In this document: positions 2,357 to 20,105 of the stretch, piece by piece
Layout of the letters: each line of letters opens with the position of its first letter
Numbering within the stretch: position 1 is the first letter of the stretch
Assembly (NCBI GenBank): GCA_028874995.1
Contig: JAPPGM010000003.1
Span: 1-35,721, forward strand
From: Gemmatimonadota bacterium
GTDB lineage: Bacteria > Gemmatimonadota > Gemmatimonadetes > Longimicrobiales > Gaopeijiaceae
DNA length: 35,721 nucleotides
Direction of reading: 5' to 3'
Program-made: the position numbers and the translations under genes
Notes under the pieces: generated by a model
Told to the model about the DNA's origin: nothing
Seen by the model: only the letters and a program-made list of their open reading frames with translations
Databases searched by the model: none

Positions 2357-3343
2357 CTACACATACGCCGCCGGATCCGCCTCGAAACGCGCGCGGCACC
2401 CCGGGCAGCAGAAGTGCACCGTCTGGCCTTGGTAGGTGGATGAGGGCCGCGACCCATCGGCGGGAACGGTCATGCCGCAGACCGGGTCGGTGGCAGTCGC
2501 AGTTGCGCCTGCGGGAGTTGCCGCGTTCTCGTCGGCGGCCACCGACCCCGCCCTCGCCAGCGCCACGATCTCTGCGAGAATGCTGATCGCCACCTCCTCC
2601 GGGCGCACGGCCCCGATGTCGAGCCCCGCCGGCCCGCGCACCTTCTCGATACGGCTGCCGCAAACACCCCTGGCGACCAGGTATTCGTGCACCTGGCCCA
2701 TGCGTTTCGGCGAGACGACCACCCCCAGGTAGTCCGCGCGCGCGGCCAGAAGCCGCTCGACCGCGTCTTCGTCGCCCCGTCCCATGGTGGCCACGACGGC
2801 GTACAGCGCAGCCCCGGCCGGGCGCGAAGCGTACCCTGCGGCGAACTGCCCATCGAGGATCCCGACGCGTTCTCCGACGGGACCTTCTCCCGCCTCCGTC
2901 GCTAAGGCCACGTCCGCCCCCTCCGCAACCACGACCCGATACCCCATTGCTTCGCCCAGCCGGGCCACCGCGTCCGCGATCGGCGAGGCGCCGACCACCA
3001 CCAGACGGGGAGCGGGATACACCGGATTGATGTGCACTTCGACCTTCCCTTCGCTGCCGCAGGACATGGGGACGGAGATGACGTCGCTGCGCGGTTCCGC
3101 GGAGCCGCCGAAGGCGAGCAGACGCGGTTGCCGCTCCGCGAGCGACGCAATGGCGTGACGGGTCACCTCGGGCAGGGTGCAGCTGCCCCCGATCCATCCG
3201 TGGACGGTCCCGTCGGACGTGATGACCGCGGTGTTGCCGGACGCCGCCGAGCTGGGGCGTTCCCGCCGGACCACCGTCGCGATCGCGTAGGGTGTCTCCC
3301 GGTCCAGCAGGCGCGCCGCGAGGCGGAGCAGGTCGCTATCCAT
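2357..3343 (-). CDS. XdhC/CoxI-family molybdenum-enzyme maturation protein with C-terminal YHS domain
   Basis: A 328-residue protein from the ATG at 3341-3343. The N-terminal XdhC_CoxI domain contains ATVVRRERPSSAASGNTAVI and GWIGGSCT. A Rossmann-like half follows with LVVVGASPIADAVARL and the terminal YLGVVVSPKRMGQVHEYL. XdhC-type proteins bind molybdopterin cofactor and promote its sulfuration before insertion into xanthine or CO dehydrogenases. After an Ala/Thr-rich linker comes an extra module, DPVCGMTV...VHFCCPGCRARFEADP, a YHS-type metal-binding domain with the CxxC-like FCCPGC core. Its start overlaps the 3' end of mocA by 8 bp, indicating translational coupling. An upstream in-frame extension to 3436 lies wholly inside mocA and is less likely. 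Confidence 0.85.
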   Translation of the reverse strand: MDSDLLRLAARLLDRETPYAIATVVRRERPSSAASGNTAVITSDGTVHGWIGGSCTLPEVTRHAIASLAERQPRLLAFGGSAEPRSDVISVPMSCGSEGKVEVHINPVYPAPRLVVVGASPIADAVARLGEAMGYRVVVAEGADVALATEAGEGPVGERVGILDGQFAAGYASRPAGAALYAVVATMGRGDEDAVERLLAARADYLGVVVSPKRMGQVHEYLVARGVCGSRIEKVRGPAGLDIGAVRPEEVAISILAEIVALARAGSVAADENAATPAGATATATDPVCGMTVPADGSRPSSTYQGQTVHFCCPGCRARFEADPAAYV

Positions 3344-4043
3344 CGTTCGCGAGCGCCTGACGGATCCACTCGTAGTCGGCCGGGTGGTCCAGGTCCCGCG
3401 CGGCCTCGGCGGACCACTCGACCTCGACCGCTTCATGGCGGTGGCGCCGCACGACCTGGCGGCCGCAACGGGCGTCCATGTCCCGGAGCTCGCCGAAGAG
3501 GCGGCGGTCGTAGAGGATGGGCGGGGCGTTGACCTCGCCGCCGTAACGGGATGCCACCAGGGGAGCGTCGGACTCTTCGTAGCGCTCGACCAGCGCCCGC
3601 AGCATCGGAGCGCTGACCAGCGGCATGTCGGCCAACATCACGATGGCGGCCGCGCTGGCGGTTCGTTCCACCACCCCGATCCCCGCCGCCACCGACGTGT
3701 GCGTCCCGTTCGCGTGCTCACCATTGAAGACGCTTCGGCACCGCAAACCGTGCAATTCACCCTCCACCGCCTCACGCGCATGCCCGGTCACTACGATCAC
3801 CGGATCCAGCCCGGCTTCGATAGCCGTGCGGGCGGCACGACGCGCCACCGTCTCGCCATTCAACTCCAGCAGCAGCTTGTTGCGCCCCATGCGCGTGGAG
3901 GCACCCGCCGCCAGGACCACAGCCGCTATCTGGTGGGCTGCATTCGCGTCGTGGCGGGTGGCATTCGCAATCCGGCGCGTGGCATCCGCAGCCGGCCGGC
4001 CTGGCGTCTCGGCCACCTCCGGCTGTCCCGCACCGTTGATCAC
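3336..4043 (-). CDS. mocA: MocA-like molybdenum cofactor cytidylyltransferase (NTP_transf_3)
   Basis: The nucleotide-binding signature LAAGASTRMG is at residues 44-53, followed by NKLLLELNGE and the metal-binding VMLADMPLVS. These are hallmarks of the MobA/MocA family; linkage to XdhC and CoxD points to MocA, which joins CTP to molybdopterin to make MCD, the cofactor form used by xanthine- and CO-dehydrogenase-type enzymes. A GTG at 4041-4043 overlaps the upstream TGA as GTGA, a standard coupling signal, and is preferred over a GTG at 4098-4100. The first 38 residues are unusual: they include three degenerate heptads (ADATRRI, ANATRHD, ANAAHQI) encoded by a 21-bp tandem repeat and are not part of the catalytic fold. 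Confidence 0.82.
   Translation of the reverse strand: MINGAGQPEVAETPGRPAADATRRIANATRHDANAAHQIAAVVLAAGASTRMGRNKLLLELNGETVARRAARTAIEAGLDPVIVVTGHAREAVEGELHGLRCRSVFNGEHANGTHTSVAAGIGVVERTASAAAIVMLADMPLVSAPMLRALVERYEESDAPLVASRYGGEVNAPPILYDRRLFGELRDMDARCGRQVVRRHRHEAVEVEWSAEAARDLDHPADYEWIRQALANDG
3931..3993. repeat. 21-bp tandem repeat, three degenerate units, inside mocA
   Basis: Units at 3931-3951, 3952-3972 and 3973-3993 share the core GGGTGGCATTCGCA with substitutions. They encode heptads in the N-terminal extension of the MocA-like protein. The length is a multiple of three, so unit gain or loss keeps frame. Confidence 0.6.
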
Positions 4044-4987
4044 CCGCCTGCTCCACCCAGCCCCGGGGGCGACGCGCTCTCCAACCACGCCGACCACCAC
4101 AGCGACGCCAGCATGCGCGCCCCCGCGGCCAGGCGCTCCGCGGCAAAGGCACGGGCTGCGGGATCCGCCGGTGTCTCCGGATCGAAACCCACGTCCCGGT
4201 CCAAACGGTACAGGGTCTCCACCTCGGCGTGCGATTCGAGGATATGGCGGCGGACGGCTTCCCGGGCTCCGCCGGACACCGACGCCGGCTCTCCCGCAGG
4301 CATATGGCGCGCCAGGTCGGCGTCCGTCAGGTGCGCCTCCACGAAGTAGCGCTCGAAGCGCGCATGGAACCCGTTGTCGCGGGTGTACCCTTCGGGGTTC
4401 GGGGTGTCACGGTCCCAGCCGTTGAAGTGAATCGTGGTGTGGTGGGGCTGGGAGGCGTCGGTCACGTAGTGCCCCAGGATGCCGGCGTCGTTGACGATCC
4501 GCTCCTCGATCCACTCACGCCGCTCGGGGTCCGTCTCGGCGGACCACATCCGCCATCCGTTTACCGTGCGCTGGTACAGTTCCATGATGCGGTACGGGAG
4601 GAAGCCGGCGTCACGCTCGGGGCGCTCCAGGCCCGCCTCGTAAAGCAACCTCAAATAGGTGAACCGGTCGGGCGCGTCAAGGGCACCATCGGGCACATTC
4701 TCCAGGTCGATGTAGTGATCGTACTGGAAGGCCTGGTCCATCTCGCGGCGCGCGCGCACGCGCCAGCGGTCCGGTTCCGGGTTGAGGTAGACCAGCTGGG
4801 GACCGGCGTCGCGAAAGAAGGCGGGCATTTCGCCGGGAAGGGTGGCGGTGGCGGCCCGTGCAGCCATTTGATGGCCCACGTAGCCCCAGGGCGGCCCGGA
4901 CACGGGGTCACTGGGAGCCGACGAGCCGGTGAGCAGCAATGCCACGAAGCACGCCCCTCCCAGTGCCGTCCTTCGCATCGATTTCAT
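4040..4987 (-). CDS. Secreted S1/P1 nuclease / zinc-dependent phospholipase C-like protein
   Basis: A 315-residue protein with an N-terminal signal peptide (MRRTALGGACFVALLLTGSS). After the cleavage region it begins WGYVGHQMAARAA, and it carries DHYIDLEN, then ILGHYVTDASQPHHTT with nearby HFNGWD, and GFHARFERYF. This spread of Trp, His and Asp residues resembles the trinuclear-zinc fold shared by S1/P1 nucleases and bacterial zinc phospholipase C. The enzyme would act in the periplasm or outside the cell on nucleic acids or phospholipids; which one cannot be decided here. It overlaps the upstream SDR gene by ATGA (4984-4987) and the downstream mocA by GTGA (4040-4043), so it is embedded in the maturation operon even though its function is not obviously linked. 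Confidence 0.72.
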   Translation of the reverse strand: MKSMRRTALGGACFVALLLTGSSAPSDPVSGPPWGYVGHQMAARAATATLPGEMPAFFRDAGPQLVYLNPEPDRWRVRARREMDQAFQYDHYIDLENVPDGALDAPDRFTYLRLLYEAGLERPERDAGFLPYRIMELYQRTVNGWRMWSAETDPERREWIEERIVNDAGILGHYVTDASQPHHTTIHFNGWDRDTPNPEGYTRDNGFHARFERYFVEAHLTDADLARHMPAGEPASVSGGAREAVRRHILESHAEVETLYRLDRDVGFDPETPADPAARAFAAERLAAGARMLASLWWSAWLESASPPGLGGAGG

Positions 4988-13563: not shown

Positions 13564-13923
13564 CTACTTGATCCGAATGACGTAAATCTCCCGGTGTTGT
13601 AAGGGGCGGTCGCCGTTGGAGTCGAAAGCGATCCTGGAACCGTCCGGGGACCACGCGGGCGACCCGGCCGACCCGCGGCCGAAGTTCGTCAGGCGCTCAA
13701 CGTCGCTTCCGTCCGCGTCCATCACATAGATCGAACTATGGTAGTGGCGGTGGGACTGGAAAGCGATCCTGGTCCCGTCCGGGGACCATACGGGCTCCTC
13801 CCCCCCGAGGTTCGTCAGCTGCGCGAAAGCTGAGTCGGGCGGTTCCACCGGGCTTTCGCAGGCGGCGGCCGGCAACACTACAAGCGAGGCGAAGAGGCGT
13901 GCGGAGGAGGGAAACCGGGTCAT
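13564..13923 (-). CDS. Short PD40/TolB-like beta-propeller lipoprotein
   Basis: A 119-residue protein from the ATG at 13921-13923. It has a lipoprotein signal (ARLFASLVVLPAAAC) and two WD40-like PD40 repeats, EPVWSPDGTRIAFQSHRH and SPAWSPDGSRIAFDSNGD, each followed by IYVMDADGSD- or IYVIRI-type strands. PD40 proteins normally carry four or more such repeats, so this may be a truncated or minimal relative; the reading frame itself is intact. It lies 173 bp upstream of the S9 peptidase on the same strand and may be co-transcribed. Confidence 0.6.
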   Translation of the reverse strand: MTRFPSSARLFASLVVLPAAACESPVEPPDSAFAQLTNLGGEEPVWSPDGTRIAFQSHRHYHSSIYVMDADGSDVERLTNFGRGSAGSPAWSPDGSRIAFDSNGDRPLQHREIYVIRIK

Positions 13924-14047: not shown

Positions 14048-14227
14048 CTGGAAGCGCCATTCGCCACCGGGAGCGAGGCCGCCGAGTCGCCCGGAAGCCA
14101 GTGCCGCATTCGCGAAGGTCTCTCCGTAGCCGCGGGCGAAGTCATGACCAGGAGGTCCGTTGACAAGGTCACCACCTGGCAGGGACGTGCAGGACCGGTC
14201 CCTGGGTGAGGAAGGGGGTCGGGCGGG
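14048..14227 (-). pseudogene. Decayed fragment of a sarcosine oxidase gamma (soxG) gene
   Basis: The stretch aligns almost end to end with the 3' part of the intact soxG at about 16367-16545. Shared blocks include GAAGCGCC, CCGTAGCCGCG and the 20-bp block ACCGGTCCCTGGGTGAGGAA (14195-14214 and 16513-16532). Many small changes scatter through the middle, and homology stops near 14227, where the intact gene continues. The fragment is therefore an old second copy of soxG, not a fresh duplication. No promoter, start or neighbouring sox sequence is left. Confidence 0.65.
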
Positions 14228-14329
14228 CCGGTGTGGGGTGGAGTTCTGGCTCCGCGCGGGGGGTCTCGGCCAGACCGCGACGAGGGGGTCGGGTGGGTCC
14301 TACCGGCACCCCAACCGCCGGATTCTCCA

Positions 14330-14418
14330 CCGATTTTATTTGATCGGAAACCTGCAGAAAGCTCTCGAAATCCCGTAAATCATTGATTCACAACGATTTA
14401 TTTATTTGACGATTATTT
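14330..14418 (+). repeat. 89-bp direct repeat, left copy, flanking the AlbA_2 gene
   Basis: Starts CCGATTTTATTTGATCGGAA and is matched without gaps by 16047-16135 (13 mismatches in 89, about 85 percent identity). It is much richer in AT than its surroundings. Inside is an imperfect palindrome, AAATCATTG-ATTCA-CAACGATTT. It ends 69 bp before the start of the AlbA_2 gene and may include its promoter. Confidence 0.8.
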
Positions 14419-14487
14419 CCACATTGCGATGTTCCGGGGCGGCCGACACCCGTTCCAAGTGGCCCACCGAGCCTGTCCGTCGCTAGA

Positions 14488-16011
14488 ATGTGCCCATCCT
14501 TGACGACCAGGGATTCCCCCTTACGAACGGCCCGCCCGGTGACGCCTCCTCGCTCATCCCGCTACCTCGTCGACCTGGTCCGTCGGCTCAGCGCCCTCCC
14601 CCACGAGACGGAGTGGGTGGAGTTCAAGGTGAACTACCGGAATCCGGAGCAGGTCGGCGAGTACGTCTCGGCCCTCGCCAACTCGGCCGCCCTGCACGGC
14701 GAGTCTCGCGGCTACGTCCTGTGGGGGGTGAGGAACAGCACCCACGAACTGGTGGGGACGGACTTCGTTCCAGCTGCCGCAAAGAAGGGGAACGAGCTCA
14801 TCGAGCCCTGGCTGGCGCGGCTTATCGAGCCGCAGGTCGATTTCCAGTTTCATCAAGTCGATGTGGACGGATCGCGGGTGGTCCTGCTCGAGGTCGGACG
14901 CGCTACGCGCCAGCCGGTGGCCTTCAAGGGTGTCGAGTTCATCCGCATCGGCAGTTCGACTCGAAAGCTGCGGGGCCACCCGCCCAAGCAACAGCAGCTC
15001 TGGCGTGTCTTCCTGGCTGCACCCTTCGAAGACGGCATCGCGGCCGAGCATCTCTCCGGCCAGGACGTCCTGCAGGCATTGGACTACCCGTCATACTTCC
15101 AACTGCTCGAGGTGCCGGCGGCGGATGGACGGAGTGCCATCCTGGAGGCTTTGGCGCACGAGCAGCTCATCCTGCGGAACCAGGCCGGCGGCTACGACGT
15201 CACCAACCTGGGCGCCATTCTCTTCGCCCGTCGTCTGGCGGACTTCCCCGGCCTCAGGCGGAAGGCCGTGCGTCTGATCCGCTATCGGGGCTCCGGGCGC
15301 ATGGACGCGGAGCGCGAGCAGGAAGGCGGCAAGGGCTACGCGAGCGGCTTCCACGGCCTGGTGAGCCACGTCCGCGCCTGGACTCCGTCCAACGAGGTGC
15401 TGGGCCCCGCGTTCCGTCGCGAGATACCGATGTTCCCGCCGGCTGCGATCCGCGAACTCGTCGCCAACGCCCTGATCCACCAGGACTTCGCGACGACCGG
15501 CGCGGGGCCGATGATCGAGATATTCGACCGTCGTCTGGAAATCAGCAATCCCGGCGAGCCGCTGATCGACACCAAGCGCTTTCTCGACTCGCAGCCCCTT
15601 TCCCGGAACGACAGGCTGGCGAACCTCATGCGCCGTCTGAAGATCTGCGAAGAGCGGGGCACCGGGATCGACAAGGTGGTTGACGCGGTGGAGACCTTCG
15701 CCCTTCCGGCACCCGTGTTCGAGAGGCCTCCGGGATTCACGCGGGCCTTGCTGTTCGCCCACAAGCCCTTCCGCGAAATGGACCGAGGCGAGCGGCTCCA
15801 CGCCTGCTACATGCACGCCTGCCTGCGTCACGTGACCCAGAAACCCATGACGAACTCATCGCTGCGGACGCGCTTCGGGATCGCAGACAGGAACGCCTCG
15901 ACGGCATCGCGCGTCCTCGCCGACGCCGTGGACGAGGGGTTGATCGTGGTCGCGGATCCGGCGGCGGGCCCGCGAGCGCGGCGCTACCTGCCGTTCTGGG
16001 CCAAGGCGTGA
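14488..16011 (+). CDS. AlbA_2 (Schlafen-type) / ATP-binding protein with C-terminal winged helix
   Basis: A 507-residue protein of normal family length. The N-terminal AlbA_2 domain begins at about residue 32 with ETEWVEFKVNY and includes GYVLWGVRNSTHELVGTDF and GVEFIRIGSSTRKL. The middle has a GHKL-like ATP-binding fold: RELVANALIHQDF (about 323-335), ISNPGEPL and EERGTGIDKVV. The C-terminal part (LRTRFGIADRNASTASRVLADAVDEGLI) looks like a winged helix. Proteins of this build are called transcriptional regulators or putative DNA helicases; the function of most is unknown and some relatives occur with mobile elements and defence genes. The first ATG is used; a GTG at 14539 is an alternative. 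Two 89-bp direct repeats bracket the gene. Confidence 0.8.
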   Translation: MCPSLTTRDSPLRTARPVTPPRSSRYLVDLVRRLSALPHETEWVEFKVNYRNPEQVGEYVSALANSAALHGESRGYVLWGVRNSTHELVGTDFVPAAAKKGNELIEPWLARLIEPQVDFQFHQVDVDGSRVVLLEVGRATRQPVAFKGVEFIRIGSSTRKLRGHPPKQQQLWRVFLAAPFEDGIAAEHLSGQDVLQALDYPSYFQLLEVPAADGRSAILEALAHEQLILRNQAGGYDVTNLGAILFARRLADFPGLRRKAVRLIRYRGSGRMDAEREQEGGKGYASGFHGLVSHVRAWTPSNEVLGPAFRREIPMFPPAAIRELVANALIHQDFATTGAGPMIEIFDRRLEISNPGEPLIDTKRFLDSQPLSRNDRLANLMRRLKICEERGTGIDKVVDAVETFALPAPVFERPPGFTRALLFAHKPFREMDRGERLHACYMHACLRHVTQKPMTNSSLRTRFGIADRNASTASRVLADAVDEGLIVVADPAAGPRARRYLPFWAKA

Positions 16012-16046
16012 TCCGGGGCCCGCGCCACCCTCGTCGCCGTTCGGTG

Positions 16047-16135
16047 CCGATTTTATTTGATCGGAAACCTGAAGAAAATCCTTGAAATCTCGTAAGTCGT
16101 TGATTCACAACGATTTGTTTTCTTGACTGTTATTT
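16047..16135 (+). repeat. 89-bp direct repeat, right copy, flanking the AlbA_2 gene
   Basis: Begins CCGATTTTATTTGATCGGAA, 36 bp after the AlbA_2 stop codon, and matches 14330-14418 without gaps. It carries the same internal palindrome with a different single mismatch (AAGTCGTTG-ATTCA-CAACGATTT). Directly after it the start motif TTATTTGATCGGAA is repeated once more (about 16130-16143). Confidence 0.8.
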
Positions 16136-16218
16136 GATCGGAAGGGGATTTCGAGGGGGCGTACCGTCGGTCTGTGGGGCCCGCTGGATCCGTTGGGACG
16201 GCGAGAGACGGGAGAGCT

Positions 16219-16260
16219 ACTTGGTCACTGACCAAGTTGAAGCATGAGCAGTGACCAAGT
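16219..16260. promoter_or_regulatory. Operator-like perfect palindrome plus a third half-site
   Basis: ACTTGGTCACTGACCAAGT at 16219-16237 is a perfect inverted repeat of 9-bp arms around one base. A third half-site, TGACCAAGT, is at 16252-16260. The form is typical of binding sites for TetR-like dimeric repressors, but the protein is not known. It lies between two convergent genes, so it cannot serve either as an upstream operator. Confidence 0.55.
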
Positions 16261-16344
16261 CGGTCCGGCGACGGCCGCGCCCTCTGGGACGGGTTCGTTC
16301 CCGTCGAGCATCCTCATCCTCGGTGCCGCGCGGGCGGCGGGAGA
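16244..16344 (+). pseudogene. Possible stump of a TetR-type regulator gene
   Basis: An ATG at 16244, directly downstream of the palindrome, opens a frame whose residues SSILILGAARA resemble the ILxAAxxLF start of TetR helix 1. After about 30 codons the frame runs into the 3' end of soxG on the other strand and all resemblance stops. Read with the palindrome, this could be the beginning of a regulator gene cut off by rearrangement. The match is short and may be chance. Confidence 0.2.
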
Positions 16345-16980
16345 TCAGAGAGCGGCTATCGCCTCGACGAAGCGCCGCTCGCCCCCGGGGGTCAGGCCGA
16401 CCGGTCCGCCGGACTTCAGGGCCGCGTCGGCAAAGGTCCGCCCGTAGCCGCGAGCCAGGGTCATCACCACCAGGTGCGCCGCGAAGGTGACGATCTGACA
16501 GGGCACGCGCAGCACCGGTCCCTGGGTGAGGAAGGGGGTGGGGCGCACCGGGTCGAAGAGGTCGAGGGGGGTGAGGTGTTCCAGGACCTGCGGGACGCCG
16601 GGGCCGACGAAGGCAAGCATGCAGTGTCCGTCGGTGGTTTCGGTGAAGCCGGCGGTCGGAGGCGTCGGGGGCGACGAGCTCTCGCCCAGGTGCCAGATCG
16701 CGACCTGGGTCCGGTTCATGCGGTTGATGACGAGAGGGGCGTGGACGCCGACCTGGCCGTACTCTCCGGGCACGGGCAGGTCCATGGGCCGGCGGGCGGC
16801 CACGTCGGCGTCCTGGAAGTCCCAGCGCCGCCTGTGGCTGAGGTCGACGAGGCGCGGACCCGGGCGGTCATCCTCGTCCTCGTAGCGCAGGACCACGGTC
16901 CAGCCGTCGCGAAGTTCGGTCTCGGCCGGGGTGGCGTCGAAGGAGACGGGGGAGCGGCGGAACGGGGGTCCGATCTTCAC
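16345..16980 (-). CDS. soxG: Sarcosine oxidase, gamma subunit
   Basis: A 211-residue protein starting with GTG at 16978-16980, which overlaps the soxA stop as GTGA. It contains LVDLSHRRRWDFQDADVAA and GQVGVHAPLVINRMNRTQVAIWHLGE. A closing segment VTFAAHLVVMTLARGYGRTFADAALKSGG also fits the SoxG family. In heterotetrameric sarcosine oxidase SoxG packs against SoxA near the folate site. Position at the end of soxB-soxD-soxA-soxG is the canonical order. The C-terminus ends at TGA 16345-16347, next to a region with operator-like and repeat sequences. A damaged second copy of the 3' half lies at 14048-14227. Confidence 0.85.
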   Translation of the reverse strand: MKIGPPFRRSPVSFDATPAETELRDGWTVVLRYEDEDDRPGPRLVDLSHRRRWDFQDADVAARRPMDLPVPGEYGQVGVHAPLVINRMNRTQVAIWHLGESSSPPTPPTAGFTETTDGHCMLAFVGPGVPQVLEHLTPLDLFDPVRPTPFLTQGPVLRVPCQIVTFAAHLVVMTLARGYGRTFADAALKSGGPVGLTPGGERRFVEAIAAL

Positions 16981-19900
16981 GAGCGCGGTTTCCCGCCTTC
17001 GGGGTCGTAGAAGGGCGGTGGGACGACCGTGGCCGTGCAGATTTCCGGGCGGCCCGGACTCTCCTCCTGGCGGATGAGGAGCCTGCCCCCCAACCCCACC
17101 ACCCCCTCGCGCACCAGCGCCATCCCGTACCGCCACCCCAGCGCCTCGCTACGGCGAGTCGTGCACACGTATCCCACGATCTCGCCGCCGTCGACCACCA
17201 CCGCCCCGTCGCGGGGCGATCCCGATCCCGGCCCACCACCATCGCGCCCGTTACGACCCCGCCCACTACCGTCCACCCGGAATCCCACCAGCTTCATGCG
17301 TCCCGGCTGCTTCTCGCAGGCCCTGAGCGCCGGTGCCCCGACCTTCTGCGACGCCGTGTCCTCGCGGTCCCACAGCCACCCCATCCCGATGTCCGTCAGC
17401 GTGACCCGAGCCTCCGACTCGGCCCCGATGATGACGTGCCCCTTCTCGGCACGCAGACAGTACTGCGCCTCCAGCCCGAAGGGTCGAATCCCGAAGTCGG
17501 CGCCCGCCTCGATCAGCAAATCCCACACGTACCGGCAATAGCTGGACGGGACATGCAGCTCGAAGGACAGCTCGCCGACGAACCCCAGCCGCAGGCAGCG
17601 CGCCTCGACCCCATCCCCGATGGTGATACGCCGGCATCCCAGATAGGGGAACCCCCCGTTCGAGACGTCGGAGTCGGTCACCCGATCCAGCACCTTGCGC
17701 GCATTCGGCCCCGCGATGTTCAGCGAGCCCAGCACGTCGGTGAGGTTCACCAGGTTGTAGTCCCACCCGTCGTAGCGTGTGTGATAGCGGAACCACTCCA
17801 CCGTCGGGCCCGCGCGGCCGGAGCTGGTGGTGAGGTAGTAGTCGTTCTCACCTTCCCGGACGACCAGGCCGTCATCGACGAGTTGCCCCATGTCGTTGCA
17901 CATCGCCGAGTACTTGCAGCGCCCGCGCCTCGCCCCGCGCATGTCGGAGATGTAGACGCGCTGCAGCGCCTCGAGCGCGTCCGGACCGAAGATGCGGAAC
18001 TTCCCGAGCGGCGAGCTGTCCAGGATCCCCACGTTGCGGCGCACGTTGCGGATCTCGTCGCGGCACGCCCGATCCTCGCTGAAGTGGCGGGCGCGCTCCC
18101 ACGCTCCGGCGCGGCGGAAGATGGCGCCCAGCCCGGCCAGCTCCCCATGCAGCGGCGTGCGCTTGTGCACGTCGTGGTTCGGCCCCGCCACCGTGGCCAG
18201 GCTGGGCGGAGCCAGCGGGGGCCGCATCGTGGTCGGCGTCGCGGCCTCGACGGGATCGCCTCTCATTTCGGCCATGATCATGGCCAGGTTCTGCCCCGCG
18301 ACCCGGTACTGGCCCGGCCCGAGCCCGAATCCCCCGAAGCGCTTGGCGAGTTCCGGCACGTCGAAGCCCTGGCGGGCGGATTCCACGACGTTCTTGTAGG
18401 TGCCGTCCTCGTCGAGGTCGACGAACGCCTTGGCGCCGCGGCCGATGCCGGGGCCGTGGCGGATACCGCATCCGGCGACCGGGCCGGGGAGGGCATCCGC
18501 GTCGCGCCGAGCGGTGGCGACCGAAGCGGCACCGTGCCGATCGGTTGCCTCTGCCTCGCGCCCGCCGGTGGCTGCCGCTTTGCCGGCCCGTTCCTGCGCG
18601 CCGTCGAGGCAACAGGTGACGGCACCATGTCCCGCCAGCCTCCCCGACGCCTCGATCGATCGTGGGTCGCGCAGCCCCGTCATGCTCCCGGCCAGGAAAA
18701 CGCCTGGCGGCAGCTCGATGGGCCGGTAGCCGTGGGTGTGGGAGCAGTAGGCCAGCCGCGCCCCGACGCTTGCGAGGACCCCGATGCGAGGCTGCATGCC
18801 CGCGTTGGCGACGAGCAGGTCGCACCGGAAACGACGCGAACCGGTGCCGTTCAGCGGACGCAGCTCGCACGCTTTCACCTGCCCGCGGCCCATGGCCCGT
18901 GACGCCGCCCATCCGGACAGCACGGGGATGCCCCGCTCCTCGAGCGCCGCAACCAGCTCGGCATCCTGCCGCCCCACCTCCCGCGCATCGGCCACGGCGC
19001 GGATCTCCACGCCCAGCTCCGCCAGGTCGGCCGCGGCCTCCAATCCCAGGTCATCACCCACACTGAAGACGGCCACCCCACCCGGCCTCACCGCATACGT
19101 GCGCGCCAACCTCCACGCCGCCCCCACCTGCATCACCCCGGGACGGTCGTTCTGGTTGAATACCAGCGGCCGGTCCATGCAGCCGGCGGCAACCACGACG
19201 GTCTCCGCACGGCACTCCCAGTGGCACTCCCGAAACGGGTCGTCCCCGGTACCCACCGTAAACCCTGTCACCAGGTTCTCTCCCCACACACCGGTGACCG
19301 GAGAGCTTGTGAAAACCTTCACAATCTCCGGGGACCGCGACCGCGCCTCCAACAACCGCGCCGCCAGCGCTTCCCCCCGCCGGTGGAGCGCCACCCCGTC
19401 GAAATCCCGCGTCCTCCAGTCCAGGTGACCACCCAGCCAACCCCGCCGCTCGAACAGACAGACCCTGAGCCCGCTCTCGGCGGCCGCCAGCGCCGCGGCC
19501 ATGCCCCCCGCCCCACCACCAATCACCGCCACATCCGCATTCAGATAGCGCTCCGCTCGCACGCCGCTCTCCGCCCGCCCGCCGTCACCAAACCCCACGG
19601 GATCCAGCACCCCGGTCCCCGCCATCCGCCTCAGCCCGTTCTGGAAGATTGGCCACGCACGCCGCGGACGATGGAAAACCCGATAGTAGAACCCCGCCGG
19701 CATCATCCGATCGAACGCATCGAGGAAGCCGAACACATCGCGGCGTGGGTCGCCCCGTACATTCTGCGCTCTCACCGACATCCCCGCCCGCAGTTCGGTC
19801 GTCTCCGCGCACTCGTTCGGCACCCCGTCGATCCTCATCAGCGTGTTCGACGACTCGCCGTCCATGCTGTAGAGCCCGCGCGGACGGTGGTATTTGAGGC

Positions 19901-20105
19901 TGCGCCCGAAGATTCGCACGCCGGCGGCGTAGAGCGCAGACGCAACGGTGTCTCCCGCGAAGCCGGTCACGGGCCGCCCCAGGAAGGTGAAGTCCAGGGG
20001 CCGGGAGAAATCGACCCGGCATGTCGGTCCCCCGGGCAAGCGGCCCTCGGGCGGGCCGGCTCGGTCCGCGACAACCCCCGCACCGTCGCGATCACCCATC
20101 CCCAT
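16977..20105 (-). CDS. soxA: Sarcosine oxidase, alpha subunit
   Basis: About 1042 residues, a little longer than typical SoxA. The N-terminal Fer2_4-like domain (GRPVTGFAGDTVASALYAAGVRIFGRSLKYHRPRG) lacks the cysteine set needed for a 2Fe-2S cluster, as is usual for SoxA. The dinucleotide-binding domain has VIGGGAGGMAAALAAAESG and a second Rossmann part (GGVAVFSVGDDLGLEAA). The C-terminal half is a GcvT-like folate-binding domain (RNVGILDSSPLGKFRIFGPDAL, LNIAGPNARKVLDRV, AEKGHVIIG). The complex turns sarcosine, tetrahydrofolate and O2 into glycine, methylene-tetrahydrofolate and H2O2. GGAGG precedes the ATG at 20105; 20099 is an alternative. A Gly/Ala/Arg-rich linker near residues 520-570 replaces part of the usual sequence. 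Confidence 0.92.
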   Translation of the reverse strand: MGMGDRDGAGVVADRAGPPEGRLPGGPTCRVDFSRPLDFTFLGRPVTGFAGDTVASALYAAGVRIFGRSLKYHRPRGLYSMDGESSNTLMRIDGVPNECAETTELRAGMSVRAQNVRGDPRRDVFGFLDAFDRMMPAGFYYRVFHRPRRAWPIFQNGLRRMAGTGVLDPVGFGDGGRAESGVRAERYLNADVAVIGGGAGGMAAALAAAESGLRVCLFERRGWLGGHLDWRTRDFDGVALHRRGEALAARLLEARSRSPEIVKVFTSSPVTGVWGENLVTGFTVGTGDDPFRECHWECRAETVVVAAGCMDRPLVFNQNDRPGVMQVGAAWRLARTYAVRPGGVAVFSVGDDLGLEAAADLAELGVEIRAVADAREVGRQDAELVAALEERGIPVLSGWAASRAMGRGQVKACELRPLNGTGSRRFRCDLLVANAGMQPRIGVLASVGARLAYCSHTHGYRPIELPPGVFLAGSMTGLRDPRSIEASGRLAGHGAVTCCLDGAQERAGKAAATGGREAEATDRHGAASVATARRDADALPGPVAGCGIRHGPGIGRGAKAFVDLDEDGTYKNVVESARQGFDVPELAKRFGGFGLGPGQYRVAGQNLAMIMAEMRGDPVEAATPTTMRPPLAPPSLATVAGPNHDVHKRTPLHGELAGLGAIFRRAGAWERARHFSEDRACRDEIRNVRRNVGILDSSPLGKFRIFGPDALEALQRVYISDMRGARRGRCKYSAMCNDMGQLVDDGLVVREGENDYYLTTSSGRAGPTVEWFRYHTRYDGWDYNLVNLTDVLGSLNIAGPNARKVLDRVTDSDVSNGGFPYLGCRRITIGDGVEARCLRLGFVGELSFELHVPSSYCRYVWDLLIEAGADFGIRPFGLEAQYCLRAEKGHVIIGAESEARVTLTDIGMGWLWDREDTASQKVGAPALRACEKQPGRMKLVGFRVDGSGRGRNGRDGGGPGSGSPRDGAVVVDGGEIVGYVCTTRRSEALGWRYGMALVREGVVGLGGRLLIRQEESPGRPEICTATVVPPPFYDPEGGKPRS

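What the first reader, a model, noticed from the sequence alone, without database searches (positions are those of the whole stretch)
14330..16135. AlbA_2/ATP-binding gene bracketed by 89-bp direct repeats with a conserved palindrome
Seen: 14330-14418 and 16047-16135 align without gaps at about 85 percent and are AT-rich in GC-rich surroundings. Each holds AAxTCxTTG-ATTCA-CAACGATTT, where a different arm position is mismatched in each copy. Between them is a single gene of 1.5 kb with no partner. Inference: the unit (repeat-gene-repeat) may be a mobile or exchangeable cassette, or the gene product binds the repeat at both ends. AlbA_2 proteins have been found near defence and mobile genes, yet none with such terminal repeats is known to me.
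Basis: partly seen in the sequence, partly recalled or inferred. Interest (0 to 1): 0.62.

Follow-up and report, generated by a model that had tools for sequence, protein, structure and literature searches.

The report
Mobile Schlafen gene with iteron sites
A single bacterial gene of the Schlafen family, probably an anti-virus nuclease, carries its own DNA-binding site behind it and spreads between very different bacteria by slipping into the ends of other genes while supplying a spare gene end, a mode of insertion I found described before only in fungal mitochondria.

Summary
The two 89-bp direct repeats are real (85% identity, E 5e-23). They are two copies of one site, R: iterons at 0, +66 and +77 bp, phased on 11 bp. 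R is not a pair of transposon ends. It is the gene's own downstream site: 51 homologous loci in bacteria and archaea have 11-bp iterons just after the stop codon, and iteron sequence covaries with one recognition-helix residue of the protein's winged helix. An upstream copy, as in the window, is the exception. The gene is a Schlafen (AlbA_2)-HATPase-wHTH protein, a domain architecture recently proposed as a backup anti-phage effector.

The insertion is larger than the repeats. The 3' end of the neighbouring soxG has been replaced by a foreign end; the native end lies displaced on the other side (14051-14231). The same gene-end replacement recurs at unrelated genes in other phyla (16/74 loci with flanking duplications, against 0/103 control genes), with one clear empty-site pair (asparaginase, Dehalococcoidia). 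Solo R sites, relics and an exchanged R-M cargo occur in the genus.

So a mobile cassette: yes; the repeat as its terminus: no. Which enzyme drives insertion is open: host recombination or the Schlafen/R complex itself.

The parts
14051..14231 (-). displaced native 3' end of soxG (codons about 196-258), frameshifted, no longer attached to soxG
   Evidence: 78% direct repeat of 16369-16551; with its non-coding flank it matches the soxG 3' end and flank of G003 at about 91%
14232..14329 (.). left end of the inserted segment, from the junction with the displaced soxG end to the first repeat
   Evidence: no match to the soxG side; the junction is where the homology of the two soxG copies stops
14330..14420 (+). 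R1, upstream copy of the iteron site: iterons at 14336, 14402, 14413 (0, +66, +77), palindrome 14377-14399
14488..16011 (+). 507-aa Schlafen (AlbA_2)-HATPase_c_4-wHTH protein; E40, E45 and K47 conserved, N83 where most relatives have D
   Evidence: Pfam; alignment; AlphaFold2 model pLDDT 88; Foldseek best 3lmm, also SLFN11/13/14
16047..16143 (+). R2, the gene's own downstream iteron site: iterons at 16053, 16119, 16130 (0, +66, +77), palindrome 16094-16116
   Evidence: iterons after the stop codon in 51 homologous loci
16144..16344 (.). spacer between R2 and soxG, not the native soxG downstream flank
   Evidence: native flank lies at the displaced copy instead
16345..16551 (-). foreign 3' end now fused to soxG (codons about 199-263)
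   Evidence: 97% identical to G018 but only 76-80% to the displaced/native ends; identity with G018 falls from 98% to 80-89% at 16510-16600
16345..17136 (-). soxG, sarcosine oxidase gamma subunit: intact chimeric target gene
   Evidence: orthologues in 18 of 23 genus genomes; upstream neighbour has sarcosine oxidase alpha domains; no Pfam hit of its own, so the name rests on position

Best explanation
The window holds a small mobile cassette: a Schlafen-HATPase-winged-helix gene (probably an anti-phage RNase effector) together with its own DNA site R. SHOWN: R is a helically phased iteron array that belongs to the 3' side of this gene clade in many phyla; iteron sequence covaries with the protein's winged helix. 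SHOWN by comparison: the cassette entered soxG, a neighbouring metabolic gene, and brought a foreign copy of the soxG 3' end, so soxG stays intact as a hybrid while the native end lies stranded on the far side. The same happened independently at other genes. INFERRED: the protein binds R; binding keeps the Schlafen nuclease in check or places it for sensing infection; cassettes travel as short, perhaps circular, DNA pieces that include one flanking gene end and enter by recombination at that gene; recombination between two R copies removes the gene and leaves a solo R. The upstream R1 probably arose when a gene-R piece recombined with an R already present.
For: Iterons: 50 of 78 homologous loci have an 11-bp-spaced repeat after the stop codon, against 2-17 for other spacings; 48 have two clusters, in 38 the gap is a multiple of 11 bp within 1. 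Residue 470 K/R goes with TAATTGA (8/8), Y with ATGTGA/ATGTAA (11/11); Mantel r 0.52 for the wHTH, partial 0.34 given the N-domain. Gene-end replacement: flanking duplications in 16/74 loci against 0/103 control ORFs, p 3e-7, and 0/20 AlbA_2 paralogues; 147 of 257 differences between fused and displaced ends lie at third codon positions, p 4e-15, so the copies diverged as working genes. Empty site: in G091 the asparaginase end and 1.5 kb of flank are collinear with the displaced end in G080. Plasmid helicase: displaced N-terminus still coupled to the preceding gene, four empty operons. soxG: displaced end matches G003. Solo R with a 72-bp gene duplication; R-flanked D12 methyltransferase and HNH gene beside a 40-codon gene remnant. 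Transfer between phyla: window, L014 and gammaproteobacterial L015 cluster 100/100. Effector role: PMC12839542.
Against: Ordinary recombination should produce the same scars around other accessory genes, and the controls show none, which favours an active role of the gene. Only about a fifth of loci still show the scar. No circular form was seen. G003 is split by a contig break exactly at the junction, so it is not a certain empty site for soxG. Some phylum assignments rest on metagenome bins. The window protein has N83 at the third putative catalytic acid. No defence gene was found beside it among the neighbours scanned.
Confidence: 0.5

Rival explanations
1. The Schlafen protein and R are themselves the mobility machinery: the protein assembles on R, its nuclease domain cuts DNA, and a one-sided fragment that includes flanking host DNA is moved into the homologous gene, as homing endonuclease ORFs do in fungal mitochondria.
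For: Scars are specific to this clade (0/103 ORFs, 0/20 paralogues); hybrid genes have the same architecture as the endonuclease mORFs of Glomus mitochondria (PMC3630166); R always travels with the gene; relics and solo R outnumber intact copies in the genus.
Against: The Schlafen fold is known as an RNase; no defined element end next to the junctions; target genes are unrelated to each other, which a sequence-specific nuclease would not explain; the nearest described relatives are placed in defence loci.
Confidence: 0.22
2. A static gene: the AT-rich repeats are operators or terminators bound by the protein for autoregulation, and the second copy is a local duplication.
For: The protein very probably binds the site; stem-loop followed by T-rich sequence; in several genomes R stands directly before the next gene.
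Against: R is on the 3' side and usually absent from the promoter side; solo R, cargo exchange and gene-end replacement need movement.
Confidence: 0.13
3. A cassette moved by a site-specific recombinase supplied in trans and acting at R, like integron or Xer-type modules.
For: Direct R copies with a core palindrome and flanking arm-like iterons; solo R and R-flanked R-M cargo; unrelated short AlbA_2 genes end at R in two plasmids.
Against: The palindrome is not conserved in the family (stem 4.5 against 4.15 in shuffles); junctions with host DNA lie outside R; most copies have a single R.
Confidence: 0.1
4. A transposon that makes target duplications of 60-250 bp on insertion, which then decay.
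For: Direct duplications of that length flank many copies.
Against: Differences between copies are concentrated at third codon positions; in asparaginase the two ends belong to two different lineages of the genus; fused and displaced soxG ends are as far apart as different species.
Confidence: 0.04

Closest known systems
[quoted passage not shown]
   Same: Same domain order: Schlafen AlbA_2, HATPase/minimal kinase, wHTH; position inside type I R-M or similar operons in several relatives (L045, L183, L186).
   Different: Stands alone beside sarcosine oxidase and peptidase genes here. The passages found there mention no downstream phased iteron site and no gene-end replacement; the rest of that paper was not read.
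Mobile ORFs (LAGLIDADG/GIY-YIG) that create gene hybrids in Glomus and Allomyces mitochondria (PMC3630166)
   Same: Inserted foreign gene end, mobile ORF, displaced native gene end; the displaced end matches relatives, the fused end does not.
   Different: Bacterial and archaeal; ORF is Schlafen-fold, not a known homing endonuclease; own iteron site; acts at 5' as well as 3' gene ends; unrelated target genes.
Schlafen 13 N-domain tRNase (PMC5862951)
   Same: E40, E45 and position 83 have the spacing of E205, E210, D248; Foldseek match.
   Different: Window protein has N83; adds ATPase and wHTH domains; tRNase activity not tested.
DIP2311 of Corynebacterium diphtheriae (PDB 3lmm)
   Same: Best fold match over most of the chain, E 3.5e-21.
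   Different: Uncharacterised; 16-18% identity; belongs to the wider AlbA_2-HATPase group.
Integron gene cassettes
   Same: Gene followed by a site; site copies left behind; cargo exchange.
   Different: Site is an 11-bp iteron array probably bound by the gene's own product; insertion into gene ends with replacement; no integrase between the repeats.

Membership tests
Schlafen-HK-wHTH effector proteins | N-terminal Schlafen AlbA_2 domain | tested here: met
   PF04326 E 1.3e-19, residues 40-161
Schlafen-HK-wHTH effector proteins | ATPase / minimal histidine kinase domain | tested here: met
   PF13749 E 1.1e-19; invariant R322 E323 N327 G391 G393
Schlafen-HK-wHTH effector proteins | C-terminal wHTH | tested here: met
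   PF25213 E 1.9e-4, below its cut-off; helices 433-482 in the model; covariation with iterons
Schlafen-HK-wHTH effector proteins | three-carboxylate Schlafen active site | tested here: inconclusive
   E40 55/55, E45 53/55, position 83 D 41/55 but N in the window
Schlafen-HK-wHTH effector proteins | anti-phage activity | not testable with these tools
   literature association only
Insertion sequence / DDE transposon | transposase gene between the ends | tested here: not met
   only the Schlafen gene lies between
Insertion sequence / DDE transposon | terminal inverted repeats | tested here: not met
   the repeats are direct; only chance-level inverted pairs found
Insertion sequence / DDE transposon | short target-site duplication | tested here: not met
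   long gene-end copies from different alleles instead
Gene-hybrid mobile ORF (fungal mitochondrial type) | hybrid gene with inserted end and displaced native end | tested here: met
Gene-hybrid mobile ORF (fungal mitochondrial type) | ORF is a LAGLIDADG or GIY-YIG homing endonuclease | tested here: not met
   Pfam
Gene-hybrid mobile ORF (fungal mitochondrial type) | endonuclease-driven transfer shown | not testable with these tools
   bench experiment needed
Integron cassette | attC site and integrase | not tested
   no genome-wide integrase or attC search; orientation of GTTG...CAAC is opposite to attC (recalled, not tested)

The most novel reading that the evidence does not exclude
A new class of single-gene mobile element in bacteria and archaea whose Schlafen-fold nuclease, assembled on its own phased iteron site, drives its insertion into gene ends and repairs the target by supplying a captured gene end.
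Probability: 0.22. Interest if true: 0.92.

Novelty: new variant of a known kind. Interest (0 to 1): 0.7.

Why it matters
If right, a widespread class of presumed anti-phage Schlafen genes has an unrecognised second half, a dedicated DNA site, and any test of these genes cloned without it may miss how they are controlled. It also extends to bacteria and archaea a mode of insertion, replacing one end of the target gene and stranding the native end, that I found described before only in fungal mitochondria, and it explains stray gene ends in genomes. The residue-470/iteron code makes the binding claim testable at once.

Tried and rejected
Rfam: no RNA family in the window. Viral contig with the 17-mer (L093): AT-rich chance match, no repeat or related gene. 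Palindrome as the family-wide core of R: not supported. Long target-site duplication: rejected on codon positions and allele origin. Crossover at codon 24 of enterobacterial hsdR: withdrawn, because R-free E. coli alleles match the same hsdR start at 94.6-96.4%. AAA_15 proteins as a control for duplications: only three loci, not used. PADLOC and NCBIfam: no informative match. MloB literature: nothing relevant. FMN-reductase-like gene of L088: no congeneric genome held, native/foreign untested. G083 asparaginase: gene-R lies on the 5' side, no clear displaced fragment.

Full report
OBSERVATION. The repeats, their identity, their AT-richness and the palindromes are as described; the second copy is found in the own genome at E 4.9e-23. 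Both copies hold iterons of the type TTATTTGAYNG at 0, +66 and +77 bp, that is on one face of the helix. A larger pair of direct repeats surrounds the unit: 14051-14231 and 16369-16551. The window is a 35.7-kb contig of a 4.5-Mb draft genome; its closest relatives by the gene are Gemmatimonadota, and the near-identical locus G018:C40 has the length of contig JAPPNO010000015.1, MAG RHO3_bin_73.

THE PROTEIN. 507 residues with SLFN_AlbA_2, HATPase_c_4 and a weak wHTH match. In 55 homologues E40 and K47 are invariant and E45 nearly so; position 83 is D in 41, N in 13 including the window. The spacing E40-E45-83 equals that of the Schlafen 13 catalytic residues E205-E210-D248 (PMC5862951). The AlphaFold2 model (pLDDT 88) matches PDB 3lmm and, over the first domain, SLFN11, 13 and 14. 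Proteins with the same architecture are described as widely linked with BREX systems and proposed as backup effectors (PMC12839542). The protein family itself is therefore not new.

THE SITE R. I scanned 79 homologous loci. A profile of R finds matching sites right behind the gene in several phyla and an upstream copy in only a few. Independent of the profile, 50 of 78 loci have an 11-bp-spaced near-perfect 9-mer repeat within 260 bp of the stop codon, against 2 to 17 for spacings of 9-10 and 12-19 bp; 51 in a wider set, 48 with two clusters, and the gap between clusters is a multiple of 11 within one base in 38 of 48. Twenty AlbA_2 paralogues of the same genus show neither feature. Iteron sequence differs between lineages and follows the recognition helix: K or R at position 470 with TAATTGA (8 of 8), Y with ATGTGA or ATGTAA (11 of 11), other residues with TTTGA or CTTGA; the partial Mantel correlation with the wHTH given the N-domain is 0.34, the reverse 0.18. 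Shared ancestry contributes, since the classes partly follow the tree, but the simplest reading is that each protein binds its own R. A long perfect stem between the clusters is not conserved.

THE INSERTION. Comparing 400 bp upstream with 800 bp downstream, 16 of 74 loci hold a direct translated duplication, 11 of them not due to R itself; 0 of 103 other ORFs of similar length in the same loci do. The duplicated pieces are ends of the neighbouring gene: soxG, asparaginase, an FMN-reductase-like gene, hsdR and others (gene names from my reading of the translations). One copy is fused to an intact gene, the other stands alone across the cassette. Pooled over ten loci (some related to each other), 147 of 257 differences fall on third codon positions, so the two ends diverged while both were working genes. 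The best-resolved case is asparaginase in a Dehalococcoidia genus: genome G091 has no cassette, and its gene end plus 1.5 kb of flank is collinear with the displaced end in G080, while the fused end is of the type found in most other members. In Pseudosulfitobacter plasmids the displaced end is the N-terminus of a helicase, still overlapping the preceding gene, with the same junction at codon 38 in four plasmids; related operons lack the cassette altogether.

THE WINDOW. In soxG the displaced end and its non-coding flank match G003 at about 91-93%, the fused end only about 77-78%. G003, G004 and G005 assemblies break at exactly this place, a G-rich stretch, so G003 cannot be proved empty. Between G000 and G018 identity is 97-99% through most of the cassette and falls to 80-89% at 16510-16600, the crossover point. 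In G002 and G013 a decayed copy lies between a peptidase gene and an undisrupted soxG.

TRAFFIC AT R. Solo R copies without the gene occur in G005, G010, G020, G022 and once more in the own genome. In G010 the solo R is flanked by a 72-bp duplication of the host gene. In G015, at the same gene, two R copies enclose a D12 adenine methyltransferase, an HNH protein and the last 40 codons of the Schlafen gene. In Citrobacter and Vibrio plasmids, R stands before hsdR behind two different short AlbA_2 genes that end at R. These fit recombination at R but do not show who performs it. The tree places the window with a Gemmatimonadota and a gammaproteobacterial bin at 100/100 and mixes phyla elsewhere; binning errors are possible.

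MECHANISM. Shown: R belongs to the gene; the gene-end replacement; solo and exchanged units. Strongly inferred: the protein binds R. Inferred: mobile intermediates carry one flanking gene end, perhaps as circles; R-by-R recombination removes the gene; R controls a defence nuclease. Whether host recombination suffices or the Schlafen/R complex takes part is open. The clade-specific scars lean towards participation; the lack of defined ends and the known RNase nature of the fold lean against.

VERDICT. A real and interesting unit: a known protein architecture with an apparently undescribed cognate DNA site and an unusual insertion mode whose only precedent I found is in fungal mitochondria (PMC3630166). 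The held library lacks bioRxiv and most subscription journals, so novelty is provisional.

Noticed in passing
L094:1-2253 (G015:C276): Two R copies enclose a D12 adenine methyltransferase, an HNH protein and a 40-codon remnant of the Schlafen gene: cargo exchange between R sites.
   Followed up: partly
window 16510-16551 (soxG codon about 199); ends of G003:C20, G003:C255, G004:C192, G005:C81: Three related draft genomes break at the same G-rich spot, two with homopolymer artefacts at the ends, exactly at the insertion point; possibly a quadruplex-prone sequence.
   Followed up: no
window 16214-16265: Inverted repeat ACTTGGTCACTG...CAGTGACCAAGT (17-nt arms, 18-nt loop) between R2 and soxG; a possible operator or terminator, role unknown.
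   Followed up: no
window 16551-20100: soxG 5' part and soxA are only about 80-85% identical between G000 and G018 while most of the surroundings are 90-95%: a second recombination tract.
   Followed up: no
window 14488-16011, residue 83 of the protein: Third putative Schlafen catalytic acid is N instead of D, as in 13 of 55 homologues.
   Followed up: partly
L187:3764-5139 and L189 about 2900-4140: R precedes hsdR behind two different shorter AlbA_2 genes that end at R, in Citrobacter and Vibrio plasmids.
   Followed up: partly
L035/L209 and L092: In one Dehalococcoidia genus the cassette sits on the 5' side of asparaginase in one genome and the 3' side in another.
   Followed up: partly
L191:3344-5000 (E. 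coli YZ22PE67 chromosome): Schlafen gene with typical R (TTGCTTGATGG iterons) beside a retron St85 and an integrase-domain gene; one of four E. coli genomes with this clade.
   Followed up: no
window 13609-13795: Short direct repeats with about 135-bp spacing in a PD40 beta-propeller ORF next to the displaced soxG end.
   Followed up: no
L182:3004-5755 (Streptococcus satellite phage Javan328): A 35% relative lies directly before the integrase of streptococcal satellite phages, without 11-bp iterons.
   Followed up: no
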